Shown here in pieces: positions 54,396 through 57,560 of a stretch of 64,000 nt of DNA. Under the pieces are notes generated by a model, which made no database searches, had not been told where the DNA came from, and saw nothing but the letters and a program-made list of their open reading frames with translations. Position numbers and translations under genes: made by a program. Every line of letters starts with the position of its first letter. Positions within the stretch are counted from its first letter, which is position 1. Source of the DNA: an uncultured Vicinamibacterales bacterium (lineage in GTDB: Bacteria; Acidobacteriota; Vicinamibacteria; Vicinamibacterales; UBA8438); the NCBI GenBank assembly GCA_958295905.1, contig OY282382.1, positions 1,574,001-1,638,000 of the forward strand, read 5' to 3'.

Positions 54396-55220
54396 TCAGG
54401 CGAGCTCCCATTCCCCGCCGTCCGAACGTGCCCGTCCTTCTTCCCGCAGCTTGATGAGGTGCGCGGCCACGCTCTCCCGCGCCATTGCCGTCAGGGCCGC
54501 GGGGAGCCCGTCGTAGAGGCGGTCGACGATGGCCTCGGGCCGCCGGGTCCCCGCCCGCAACGCTGCGACGATCTGGTCTTCGCGGCGTTGCCGGTGTTCG
54601 AGGTACGACCGGAGCACCGCCTGCGGGTCGTCGATGGGCCCGCCGTGGGCGGGCAGCATGCGGGCGGGGGCCAACGCCTGCACGCGCCGGAGCGACGCCA
54701 GATACTGCGACAGGCTGCCGCCGCGCGAGGCGGGGATGACGACGGTCGAACCGGGCACGACGAGATCGGCGGAGAATAGCGTACCGCCCGCCTCGTCGAA
54801 GAAGCAGAGGTGATCGGGGGCGTGGCCCGGGGTGTGGACGGCGCGCACCGCCCCGTCCCCGGCGGGAATCAGCTCGTCGTCGGCGATCGGCGCCCACGCC
54901 ACCGCATGCGCCCGGTCCCTTTCCGGCCAGGGCATCTTCCGGAACGCGGCATCCGGCCAGCGGGCGGCGATGGGCTCGCTGCCGTCGGCGTGGTCGGGGT
55001 GCGCATGGGTGACGAGGACTTGGGCCAGCCCGTCGGTTCCGAGCGCCTGCGCCAGGGCCGACAGGTGCCCGGCCTCGCCGGTCGCGGCGTCCAGCAGCAC
55101 CGGTTCCCGCCCCGACAGCAGATAGGTGTTGTTGCCGGCGCCGGTCATCGGGCCGGGGTTGAAGCCGGGAATGCGGGTGATTTGCACGATGTCGATCAGC
55201 GCCGCGGCGTGATGCGCCAC
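54396..55220 (-). CDS. MBL-fold hydrolase, LACTB2-like
   Basis: 274 residues from GTG 55220; longer frames extend into Arg/Gly-rich sequence and are not credible. The dinuclear-zinc motif is VLVTHAHPDHADGSE (HxHxDH), then AVHTPGHAPDHLCFFDE, LFSADLVV, and MLPAHGGP. A winged-helix-like C-terminus (VDRLYDGLPAALTAMARESV, HLIKLREEGRA) is the LACTB2/RNase-like extension. The human homologue is an RNA endonuclease; bacterial members are mostly uncharacterised. Followed by the sulfurtransferase. Confidence 0.85.
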   Translation of the reverse strand: MAHHAAALIDIVQITRIPGFNPGPMTGAGNNTYLLSGREPVLLDAATGEAGHLSALAQALGTDGLAQVLVTHAHPDHADGSEPIAARWPDAAFRKMPWPERDRAHAVAWAPIADDELIPAGDGAVRAVHTPGHAPDHLCFFDEAGGTLFSADLVVPGSTVVIPASRGGSLSQYLASLRRVQALAPARMLPAHGGPIDDPQAVLRSYLEHRQRREDQIVAALRAGTRRPEAIVDRLYDGLPAALTAMARESVAAHLIKLREEGRARSDGGEWELA

Positions 55221-55593
55221 GCGGCGGCAGAGTCCGGGGGGCCAAGCCGGGGGCGGCCGGCGGCTCCCGCCCGGGCAGCGTCCTGCGCGAGCCGCCCGCC
55301 CCCGCCATTCTACATCTCCCGCCCGCGCCGAACCGGCAGTCCCGGCGACCTGCGCCGGCCTGCCGTTCTCCGTGATCTCCATGTGTCGAGGGCGCGATTC
55401 GGGGCATAATGAGGGAGCGCTCCTGAGCGCGCTGGGTGGCGGCCGACGGCGAACCGCCGTGCGGCCGGCGGTGCGGAGCGCCACGTTCGTGGACGGCTTC
55501 CCGGTTCTGAATCCGCGTTCCCGATGATGGCGGACGCCGGGCGGCAGCGAATCCGGACGCTCGGCAAGGCGGCTCGTCACCCTTGGACGGTGG
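55221..55593. other. Intergenic ahead of the TIGR04255 cassette
   Basis: About 370 bp; base composition falls from about 72 to about 60 percent GC toward the right side. No gene or repeat copy is recognised. GGCATAATGAGG at about 55404-55415 contains a -10-like CATAAT but no matching -35. Confidence 0.4.
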
Positions 55594-56433
55594 ATGTCCG
55601 CACGAGCGGGAGAACTGACATTGGCGTTTGCGCCAATTGGTGAACGACACGCGATTGCCGAGGTGGTCTTCGCTCTTCAGGTCTCCCCTGCGATTACCGG
55701 CGACGACCGAAGGAACCTGGAGAACGCACGCGGACAGTGGGAAGGGTTCCTGCCCGGGATCGCAGAATCGACAATGTTGGCGGTTGGCGTGTCGAATCCC
55801 GGTGAACAGCCACCGCCGCCGCCGGTGCCGCCCCTTGATTTCGTCCGCCACAAGTCTGATGGCGGCCTTGATTGGCGCCTGCACATCCTGGACGGGAACA
55901 TCGTAGTCAACTGCCTGACGTATACACGGTGGCCGCACATCTGGAAACAGGCCAGGGGATTGTTCGCCGCAGTCTCGGGGGTCCTGCCGGAGACCACACT
56001 GGTCGAGTCCGTGTATCTCCAGTACATCAACATTTTTTCCTGGAGCGGAACGACGGAAAATTACGACTCACGAGCGCTTCTCGACGAACAGAGCCCCTCT
56101 GTGCCGGCCAGTGTTCTCGATCGTGGTCCCCACTGGCATCTGCATCAGGGCTGGTTCAGCCCGCTGACCGCACCGCTTGCCGGGCGTATTCTCGAGCGTA
56201 TGCATATTGACGCCTTCGACGACCCAACCGGCCGACATGTCGTCAAGTTCGAGAATCTTCACCGGTTCGACTTCGATCGAGACGGCGGCGTTCCATTCCT
56301 CAGGGAAGCGTTCTCGACCGCAACGACGGCGATGGACGCCAGCTTCGATCACCTGCACGGTCGCGCCAGGAAGTCGCTCGGCGCCTACCTGACCCCTGAC
56401 ATCCAAAGGAGCATCAATCTGCATGCTACGTGA
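55594..56433 (+). CDS. TIGR04255 family protein
   Basis: 279 residues. It opens TLAFAPIGERHAIAEVVFAL, a typical start for the sporadically distributed TIGR04255 family, and ends with FDHLHGRARKSLGAYLTPDI, its C-terminal helix. The middle has alternating beta strands (LDWRLHILDGNIVVNCLTYT, VESVYLQYINIF) and RHVVKFENLHRFDF. No catalytic residues are known for the family. Base composition is lower in GC than its neighbours (about 57-62 percent in sampled lines, against about 72). It overlaps the next gene by 11 bp, and the three genes to 57560 form one unit. Confidence 0.75.
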   Translation: MSARAGELTLAFAPIGERHAIAEVVFALQVSPAITGDDRRNLENARGQWEGFLPGIAESTMLAVGVSNPGEQPPPPPVPPLDFVRHKSDGGLDWRLHILDGNIVVNCLTYTRWPHIWKQARGLFAAVSGVLPETTLVESVYLQYINIFSWSGTTENYDSRALLDEQSPSVPASVLDRGPHWHLHQGWFSPLTAPLAGRILERMHIDAFDDPTGRHVVKFENLHRFDFDRDGGVPFLREAFSTATTAMDASFDHLHGRARKSLGAYLTPDIQRSINLHAT

Positions 56434-57043
56434 GTCTGCAGCCAGTGAGCGAACTGCTGCTCCAGTCCCTCCAGGAGTCATGGCGGCGACTCTCGTTTCC
56501 GTGTTGACGACAGCTTCGCTCTGGTCCGCAACGGTTCTCGACGGGACGAATCCGGTCAAGGCGCTCACCAACGATCCGGTAGCAGCCCCGACGGTATCCG
56601 ACAGGCTTTCATCGGCGCTGTCGTATCCCGAGACAACGGGGTCGGAGAAGCTGCCGGCGGCCGCCGGCCGCATCACACGGTTGACCGAAGCGTCTCCTGA
56701 TCGCAAGGAGCCGCTCAGAGAGAGGATCCGCTCCATCATGATGGAGACGGACGACCCTCGGGACGGAATACGGCCGTCCCCGGACGCCATCAACGAGGCG
56801 CTTCGATTCGTGGATCTGCTTCCGGCGGACTCACCGGTGCCTCACGTCTCGGTCGCCGACGATGGCGAAGTCAACTTCTTTCGGCGCGGGCACGGACTGT
56901 TCATCGACATCGGCTTCTTCGGCGATGGTCAGATTCACTACTACGCCCGTGTGGACGCCCTGGGAATCGACGTGACCGGATCGGAACCGTTCAGCGGCCG
57001 CTCTCTGCCGCGCGATCTCGTTATCCCCATTACGACGGACTGA
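56423..57043 (+). CDS. Cassette protein 2, hypothetical
   Basis: 206 residues. An N-terminal hydrophobic stretch (VMAATLVSVLTTASLWSATVL, about 19-39) may be a signal or a membrane helix. Residues 80-130 are charged helical (REPLRERIRSIMMETDDPRD, PDAINEALRFVDLLPADSPV). The C-terminal 75 residues have VSVADDGEVNFFRRGHGLFI and DIGFFGDGQIHYYARVD, a beta pattern common in small partner proteins of TIGR04255 loci. I do not recognise a family. It starts inside the end of the TIGR04255 gene and its stop is 1 bp from the start of the next. Confidence 0.65.
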   Translation: MLRESAASERTAAPVPPGVMAATLVSVLTTASLWSATVLDGTNPVKALTNDPVAAPTVSDRLSSALSYPETTGSEKLPAAAGRITRLTEASPDRKEPLRERIRSIMMETDDPRDGIRPSPDAINEALRFVDLLPADSPVPHVSVADDGEVNFFRRGHGLFIDIGFFGDGQIHYYARVDALGIDVTGSEPFSGRSLPRDLVIPITTD

Positions 57044-57044
57044 G

Positions 57045-57560
57045 ATGGTCAACGGCCGATCAGCCGGCGGACGCGAGTGTCCGGAAGAGATGACTGCCCA
57101 GTCGGTGAACGGTCCAGGACTTGTGCTCGACGAGGAAGAGTTGGGGCGTTTTCTCTACCGGGACGATCACCTGACGGCGGACGGTCATCTGGTGCCCGCG
57201 GCGTTGCCTACCAGTGACCTGCTCGATCCGCAACGAGCATGTCTCTCCGTGGGGCGGCTCGGTCACCTGACGGCCCACGGCATCTGCCGCTTGGTTGCAG
57301 AGCGTGAACAGAAGACGCCGGCCAACCGGTTCGGTGGTTGTGGCGTCGCCGTGACCGCGGACGTGAGAAACCTGCGCACGCCCGATGGCCGGCGTGAACT
57401 GTGCGTCGTGGATGACGCCGCGGATGGATTCAACGCTCACGCCCTGGTGCGGCTGGCGAATCCCGGCGCGTACCGCAGGGGATCTGTCAAACGGCTGCGG
57501 GGACGGTTGCTCGACCTTTTCAGCTTTCGTCCGGCGCGCGCGTTGCTCGGACCTCGGTAG
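57045..57560 (+). CDS. Cassette protein 3, hypothetical
   Basis: 171 residues from ATG 57045 (ATG 57090 with GGAAGAG in front is an alternative). Features: EELGRFLYRDDHLTADGHLV, LSVGRLGHLTAHGICRLVAE and CGVAVTADVRNLRTPDGRRE, then CVVDDAADGFNAHALVRLAN. The repeated 'D-x-HLT-A-(D/H)-G' pattern (DDHLTADGH and LGHLTAHGI) is notable, with several His and Asp that could bind metal. No family recognised. The last gene of the cassette; thyX-like gene starts 5 bp after it. Confidence 0.62.
   Translation: MVNGRSAGGRECPEEMTAQSVNGPGLVLDEEELGRFLYRDDHLTADGHLVPAALPTSDLLDPQRACLSVGRLGHLTAHGICRLVAEREQKTPANRFGGCGVAVTADVRNLRTPDGRRELCVVDDAADGFNAHALVRLANPGAYRRGSVKRLRGRLLDLFSFRPARALLGPR

What the first reader, a model, noticed from the sequence alone, without database searches (positions are those of the whole stretch)
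55594..57560. Lower-GC three-gene cassette led by a TIGR04255 protein
Seen: three tightly packed genes (11-bp overlap, then a 1-bp gap) whose base composition is visibly lower than that of both neighbours. Gene 1 looks like the TIGR04255 family, known only as sporadically distributed and without a function. Gene 2 has an N-terminal hydrophobic segment and a C-terminal DGEVNFF-type beta domain. Gene 3 has a repeated HLTA(D/H)G pattern. Sporadic spread, tight coupling and foreign composition are the marks of a mobile functional module such as a defence, toxin or stress system. This is the best candidate here for an undescribed system. The functional idea is inference.
Basis: partly seen in the sequence, partly recalled or inferred. 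Interest (0 to 1): 0.75.

Follow-up and report, generated by a model that had tools for sequence, protein, structure and literature searches.

The report
Three-gene TIGR04255 toxin-antitoxin-like cassette
A compact, patchily inherited set of three bacterial genes looks like a self-poisoning safety switch of a new make, in which a protein family of unknown function (TIGR04255) is teamed with a likely antidote and a likely toxin; relatives swap in different toxins, which makes the function of TIGR04255 testable.

Summary
Gene 1 is TIGR04255 (48.9 bits, cut-off 30). GC at third codon positions is 0.70-0.72, against 0.87-0.94 in neighbours. Congeners keep the flanking genes with 484-566 bp where the window has about 2.4 kb. 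One congener retains an 89-bp relic of gene 3 there, so the cassette was lost by relatives rather than freshly gained.

The trio is a real unit. Same-order orthologues occur in another Acidobacteria genome and, across phyla, in Pseudomonadales. Distant homologues of genes 2 and 3 follow TIGR04255 in 17 of 45 readable loci. In most others the third gene is a CD-motif protein behind an HTH gene (17), or PIN, MazF/PemK, HEPN-like or HicA-like (9; several weak). So TIGR04255 is the constant partner of exchangeable toxin-like pairs.

Gene 2's C-terminal domain links, through intermediates, to PADLOC's untested defence candidate PDC-M32A. Gene 3 has invariant R35, S68 and H132; its confident model best resembles ADP-ribosyltransferase folds, but weakly (Z 4.5 or less, no sequence support).

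Best reading: a tripartite toxin-antitoxin-like module, probably abortive defence. Toxicity, neutralisation and phage protection are untested. The hydrophobic segment and HLTA(D/H)G repeat are not conserved.

The parts
55594..56433 (+). Gene 1 (A): TIGR04255-family protein; likely true start TTG 55621 (GGAGA just upstream; matches the start of the orthologue in L041)
   Evidence: TIGR04255 48.9 bits; hhalign of its orthologue group to other TIGR04255 proteins, prob 97.7, E 2.5e-12, 231 columns; AF2 pLDDT 90.8, pTM 0.87
56423..57043 (+). Gene 2 (B): variable N-terminal tail plus conserved C-terminal beta domain; putative antitoxin/adapter
   Evidence: hhalign to type Ia B proteins prob 96.7, E 3.5e-10; type Ia to Ib E 2.3e-10; type Ib to PDC-M32A C-terminus E 9e-14
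56774..57022 (+). Conserved domain of gene 2 (about residues 118-200, VPHVSVADDGEVNFF...GFFGDG)
   Evidence: alignments A2, A7
57045..57560 (+). Gene 3 (C): putative toxin/effector with an ADP-ribosyltransferase-like fold
   Evidence: hhalign to type Ia C proteins prob 95.6, E 1.2e-8; AF2 pLDDT 91.2, pTM 0.85; VIA-align top matches Z 4.5-3.0
57147..57149 (+). Codon of invariant Arg35 of gene 3
   Evidence: invariant in 24 aligned C proteins
57246..57248 (+). Codon of invariant Ser68 of gene 3
57438..57440 (+). Codon of invariant His132 of gene 3
55200..57559 (.). Stretch without counterpart in congeners G167 and G168 (replaced there by 566 and 484 bp; in G168 the counterpart of about 57389-57476 survives as a relic of gene 3)
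   Evidence: blastn synteny break 55199-57560; relic

Best explanation
The cassette is a tripartite toxin-antitoxin-like module. Gene 3 is the toxin or effector, probably an enzyme with an ADP-ribosyltransferase-like fold that would act on NAD+ or on a nucleic-acid or protein target. Gene 2 is its partner antitoxin or adapter: the C-terminal domain would bind gene 3's product and the N-terminal tail would bind gene 1's product. Gene 1 (TIGR04255) is the shared third component that senses a threat or stabilises gene 2's product. When gene 1's or gene 2's product is titrated, altered or degraded, for example during phage infection, gene 3's product is released and stops growth. Shown here: gene order, homology, co-occurrence, exchange of third genes and patchy inheritance. 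Inferred: toxicity, neutralisation, binding and trigger.
For: Conserved three-gene unit: orthologues at 36-52% identity with the same 11-bp A/B overlap in an Acidobacteria MAG (L089/L041) and a Pseudomonadales MAG (L090), plus a decayed copy in another (L092). Homology of each gene to the wider type is significant (E 2.5e-12, 3.5e-10, 1.2e-8). Among 45 TIGR04255 loci with readable downstream DNA the next two genes are a B-C pair in 17, a CD-motif protein usually behind an HTH/tail protein in 17, and toxin-like in 9: PIN E 1.7e-11 and 7e-8, PemK/MazF E 5.8e-19 and 0.006, HEPN 0.02-0.05 (three), HicA 0.04 plus one relative. The L113 third gene also matches Kid/MazF structures, E 8.8e-12. Gene 2-type proteins linked to TIGR04255 have longer N-terminal tails than those without it (conserved motif at median residue 107 against 80, p = 0.002). 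The top six structural matches of gene 3 include tRNA 2'-phosphotransferase, pertussis S1, MbcT, SdeA and heat-labile enterotoxin A, which have ADP-ribosyltransferase folds by established knowledge.
Against: No experiment. ART similarity is weak (Z 4.5 or less; Foldseek nothing significant) and profile comparison with RES and tRNA 2'-phosphotransferase families gives nothing. The third invariant residue is His, where many ADP-ribosyltransferases have Glu. Gene 2-like proteins also occur alone (L039, L040, L053) and the PDC-M32-type pair occurs without TIGR04255 (L058/L179), so gene 1 is not always required. The HEPN and HicA matches are below curated cut-offs. The tail-length test uses few proteins, uncertain start codons, and a regex that clearly misplaced one motif (L115).
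Confidence: 0.45

Rival explanations
1. It is a phage-defence system of the PDC-M32 kind in which genes 2 and 3 form the constant sensor-effector pair and gene 1 is one of several interchangeable recognition proteins; there is no toxin-antitoxin pair in the strict sense.
For: The type Ib gene 2 relative matches PDC-M32A C-terminus E 9e-14; PDC-M32A carries a different N-terminal domain; B-C pairs occur with no TIGR04255 (G023) and B'C'-type pairs follow other first genes (L043, L047, L055, L143, L144, L145).
Against: PDC-M32 itself has no experimental support that I found. TIGR04255 also pairs with MazF and PIN toxins, which suggests TA logic. The C to PDC-M32B link is weak (E 0.024).
Confidence: 0.25
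2. It is a regulatory or stress module, not defence: gene 1, with a duplicated alpha/beta fold arranged like TATA-binding protein, binds nucleic acid or a ligand and controls the pair.
For: VIA-align matches of gene 1 to many TBP chains, Z 6.1-7.1; HTH middle genes in many TIGR04255 loci (PF01381 E 1.1e-5).
Against: Z under 8 may be only a common arrangement (note). Sporadic presence (39 of 396 genomes) and toxin neighbours are unusual for a housekeeping regulator.
Confidence: 0.12
3. The three genes are decaying foreign remnants without present function.
For: Lower GC3 than the host; congeners lost them; one Pseudomonadales copy is broken (L092).
Against: All three frames are intact with kept overlaps; invariant residues are retained; intact orthologous trios exist in three genomes of two phyla, the window included.
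Confidence: 0.08

Closest known systems
PDC-M32 (phage defence candidate M32, PADLOC-DB)
   Same: Gene 2's domain belongs, through intermediates, with the C-terminal domain of PDC-M32A; the following small gene is in the place of PDC-M32B
   Different: Three genes rather than two; gene 1 is TIGR04255 instead of the different N-terminal domain of PDC-M32A; gene 3 is not recognised by the PDC-M32B model
Toxin-antitoxin-chaperone (TAC) modules with SecB-like chaperone (PMC5105189, PMC6377645)
   Same: Three-gene operon, a constant third component combined with different TA families, and an extension on the antitoxin-position protein as the possible docking element
   Different: The constant component is TIGR04255, not detected as SecB; the extension is N-terminal, while ChAD is C-terminal; no chaperone function shown
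ADP-ribosyltransferase-fold TA toxins (RES/MbcT, DarT)
   Same: Fold-level resemblance of gene 3 and an invariant Arg and Ser
   Different: No sequence-profile link to RES or tRNA 2'-phosphotransferase families; third invariant residue is His
TIGR04255 (sporadTIGR04255, NCBIfam)
   Same: Gene 1 is a member
   Different: Divergent subgroup that the family model partly misses: it did not report the L041 orthologue (G020) at E 0.001

Membership tests
TIGR04255 | Score above NCBI's curated cut-off (30 bits) | tested here: met
   48.9 bits, E 7.5e-13; profile-profile prob 97.7 over 231 columns
PDC-M32 | Gene 2 matches the PDC-M32A model | tested here: not met
   No hit for window gene 2; linked only through type Ia and Ib relatives
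PDC-M32 | Gene 3 matches the PDC-M32B model | tested here: not met
   No hit in the window; L020 relative E 0.024; L058 C to type Ib C E 0.003, prob 9.5
PDC-M32 | Protection against phage | not testable with these tools
   PDC-M32 itself is only a candidate (PMC12429752)
Type II toxin-antitoxin | Small, closely packed co-oriented genes, partner gene before toxin gene | tested here: met
   11-bp overlap and 1-bp gap; same order in relatives
Type II toxin-antitoxin | Gene 3 toxic, neutralised by partner | not testable with these tools
   Needs an expression assay
Type II toxin-antitoxin | Recognised toxin family | tested here: inconclusive
   No Pfam/NCBIfam/PADLOC hit for gene 3; other TIGR04255 loci have PIN and PemK
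TAC (SecB-type) | Third component is a SecB homologue | tested here: inconclusive
   Gene 1 has no Pfam hit up to E 1; the fold comparison cannot exclude a distant relation
ADP-ribosyltransferase superfamily | ART fold | tested here: inconclusive
   Five of the six best VIA-align rows are ART-fold proteins by established knowledge, Z 4.5-3.0, but Foldseek is not significant
ADP-ribosyltransferase superfamily | Sequence profile relation to RES or PTS_2-RNA | tested here: not met
   hhalign prob 0.2 and 0.1

The most novel reading that the evidence does not exclude
TIGR04255 is a promiscuous third component that defines a new class of tripartite toxin-antitoxin/abortive-infection modules. It docks on N-terminal tails of antitoxin-position proteins of unrelated families (partners of MazF-, PIN- and HicA-like toxins, HTH proteins and the beta-domain type of this window) and so controls many toxins, including a new ART-fold toxin family with an R-S-H set, represented by gene 3 of this window.
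Probability: 0.33. Interest if true: 0.78.

Novelty: new variant of a known kind. Interest (0 to 1): 0.58.

Why it matters
A protein family named only for its scattered spread gets a concrete, testable role: the constant partner of exchangeable toxin-like gene pairs. If right, it gives a second, unrelated solution to the 'one control protein, many toxins' logic known from SecB-type TAC modules. It would also explain what the PDC-M32 defence candidate is and add a toxin family with no recognised domain. One co-expression experiment in E. coli would decide most of it.

Tried and rejected
PHROGs, PADLOC, Pfam and NCBIfam for genes 2 and 3: nothing. Plasmids (genes 1 and 2) and viral contigs (gene 1; two relatives): no matches, so carriage by phage or plasmid is unsupported in these sets. 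Membrane anchor in gene 2: rejected, hydrophobicity not conserved. HLTA(D/H)G repeat: rejected, not kept in orthologues. Fresh insertion into an empty site: rejected, because G168 carries a relic of gene 3. Defence island: flanks of 12 loci with B-C pairs (104 proteins) include type I R-M, SoFic and AbiEi proteins, but the control window also gives 1 of 48 and per-protein counts are not available, so inconclusive. Sequence link of gene 3 to RES and tRNA 2'-phosphotransferase: none; RES and KptA thus remain only fold analogies. A' (first gene of L043-type cassettes) as a TIGR04255 relative: not supported (prob 0.3). C' as a C relative: only the shared R/S/H pattern, profile comparison weak (prob 0.5-2), so primes are kept out of the counts except L119, which has TIGR04255. 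SecB was not among the rows shown for gene 1, which does not exclude it. Foldseek of gene 3 against viral models: nothing significant. PDB sequence search for the middle genes of L113, L102 and L110: nothing convincing, so their being antitoxins rests on position and by-eye resemblance only.

Full report
Observation. The three ORFs are present as described, with an 11-bp overlap and a 1-bp gap. Their third-position GC is 0.70-0.72, while correctly framed neighbouring genes have 0.87-0.94 (gene names there are my reading of the translations, except the Pfam-confirmed Thy1 gene). The dip in overall GC is largely confined to the cassette. Gene 1 passes the TIGR04255 cut-off; genes 2 and 3 match no Pfam, NCBIfam, PADLOC or PHROGs family. 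TIGR04255 occurs once in this genome, in 20 of 193 genomes of the class and in 39 of 396 of the phylum.

What follows TIGR04255 elsewhere. I read the downstream ORFs of 50 loci (HMM classification, where most sequences were also in the training sets; counts are by hand from these outputs). Five are cut off or unreadable. Of 45 readable loci, 17 have a B gene with the motif seen in window gene 2 (P.PxVxVxxDGExxLxW) and then a C gene (12 in the first set, 5 in the second, counting L106 and L119, which are less certain). In 17 the third gene has a TQTCDIV-like motif, usually behind a tail-HTH protein (L005 is counted on its HTH gene alone). In 9 it is toxin-like: PIN (L102, L117; in L117 it is the second gene), PemK/MazF (L113 strong, L109 weak), HEPN-like (L024, L096, L098, weak), HicA-like (L110 weak, and L111, grouped with it by eye only). 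Two are unclear. An eighteenth B-C case, L142, came from the C search.

Homology of the window genes to this type. A profile of B proteins built without the window finds gene 2 at E 1e-5 among 15,000 shuffles, and the C profile finds gene 3 at E 0.003. With close orthologues added, profile-profile comparison gives prob 97.7 / E 2.5e-12 (A), 96.7 / 3.5e-10 (B) and 95.6 / 1.2e-8 (C), while mismatched pairs such as C against B give prob 0.3 or less. Type Ia and Ib B proteins are related (E 2.3e-10), and a type Ib B matches the C-terminal third of PDC-M32A (E 9e-14). PDC-M32A's N-terminal part is a different domain, seen here as a separate gene before a small gene that looks PIN-like by eye. The only open-access paper found that names PDC-M32 lists it as a hypothetical system in Sinorhizobium prophages.

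Closest relatives and history. A scan of 84,980 species genomes for the window subtype of gene 2 found five loci. Two carry an intact A-B-C trio: an Acidobacteria MAG (SB0661_bin_8; identities 36/52/38%) and a Pseudomonadales MAG (42/50/43%). A second Pseudomonadales MAG has a broken trio and two Acidobacteria have gene 2 alone. The first shares the class of the window genome (G020), so the window comes from the Acidobacteria. Spread across phyla plus low GC3 points to horizontal transfer. In congeners G167 and G168 the same neighbours flank 566 and 484 bp. In G168, about 94 bp before the Thy1-like gene, 89 bp at 73% identity encode VVDDGRDGLDTHAVVRSASP, a relic of gene 3 in register with the window. 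Hence the genus ancestor probably had the cassette and relatives lost it.

Structures. Gene 3 was predicted at pLDDT 91.2 / pTM 0.85 and gene 1 at 90.8 / 0.87. Foldseek against the PDB gave nothing significant for either. VIA-align on the Foldseek list gave, for gene 3, tRNA 2'-phosphotransferase (Z 4.5, 95 residues, 4.9 A), pertussis S1 (4.4), 2aua (4.1), MbcT (3.3), SdeA (3.1) and heat-labile enterotoxin A (3.0), then McsB chains near 2. Five of these six are ADP-ribosyltransferase-fold proteins by established knowledge; 2aua is of unknown function. R35 lies in the first strand, as the catalytic Arg does in that superfamily, and S68 and H132 are the other invariant residues in 24 aligned C proteins; whether the three lie together in space was not measured. 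Because Z is low and profile comparison with RES and PTS_2-RNA families is empty, I treat ART fold as a lead, not as membership. Gene 1 shows two successive alpha/beta units and matches TBP chains at Z 6.1-7.1, below the level that means more than a common arrangement.

Mechanism. Toxin-like third genes of unrelated families behind one constant first gene, tight overlaps, and middle genes with a variable N-terminal tail before different partner domains suggest TA logic with TIGR04255 as the shared control component. B proteins linked to TIGR04255 place their conserved motif later (median residue 107, n = 18) than B proteins without it (80, n = 7; p = 0.002), consistent with a tail that TIGR04255 binds. 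This resembles TAC modules, where a SecB-like chaperone serves HigBA, HicAB or MqsRA pairs (PMC5105189), but no relation to SecB was found. Which of genes 1 and 2 neutralises gene 3, and what triggers it, is inference.

Limits. MAG contigs, ORF-based gene calls and hand counts; start codons uncertain; defence-island enrichment not established; no toxicity, binding or phage data.

Noticed in passing
L145 (own genome, contig C1 about 3373034-3373438): The same genome has a second, different three-gene cassette: a short non-TIGR04255 first protein (AEFHNPSILNPDFL motif), a B'-like protein and a C'-like protein (HLSRYCKP...LSVNWLEYF...SHAGI). Similar cassettes in L043, L047, L055 and L143.
   Followed up: partly
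L005-L008, L094, L097, L099, L100, L103, L114: A second large TIGR04255 cassette type: tail plus HTH protein (SGLTWEQLGQLFGVSRRSVHFWASG) followed by an undescribed protein with a TQTCDIV / SHDCDL motif; no Pfam match for the latter in L008.
   Followed up: partly
L146:707-1507: A truncated type I methyltransferase-like (HsdM-like) frame runs directly into a B'-like domain and is followed by a C'-like ORF.
   Followed up: no
L092:5132-8436: Decayed copy of the window-type cassette in a Pseudomonadales MAG: gene 1 frame-shifted, gene 3 separated from gene 2 by other sequence.
   Followed up: partly
window, one of 48 genes outside the cassette: One window protein matches PADLOC candidate PDC-S01 at E 1.6e-127; it is none of the ten proteins tested and was not pinned down.
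   Followed up: partly
class of the window genome: RES-domain genes are common in this class (70 of 149 genomes, one in the window's own genome).
   Followed up: no
window:55594-55623: The ORF start of gene 1 is probably 27 bp too early: TTG at 55621 has a GGAGA ribosome site and aligns with the ATG start of the orthologue in L041.
   Followed up: yes
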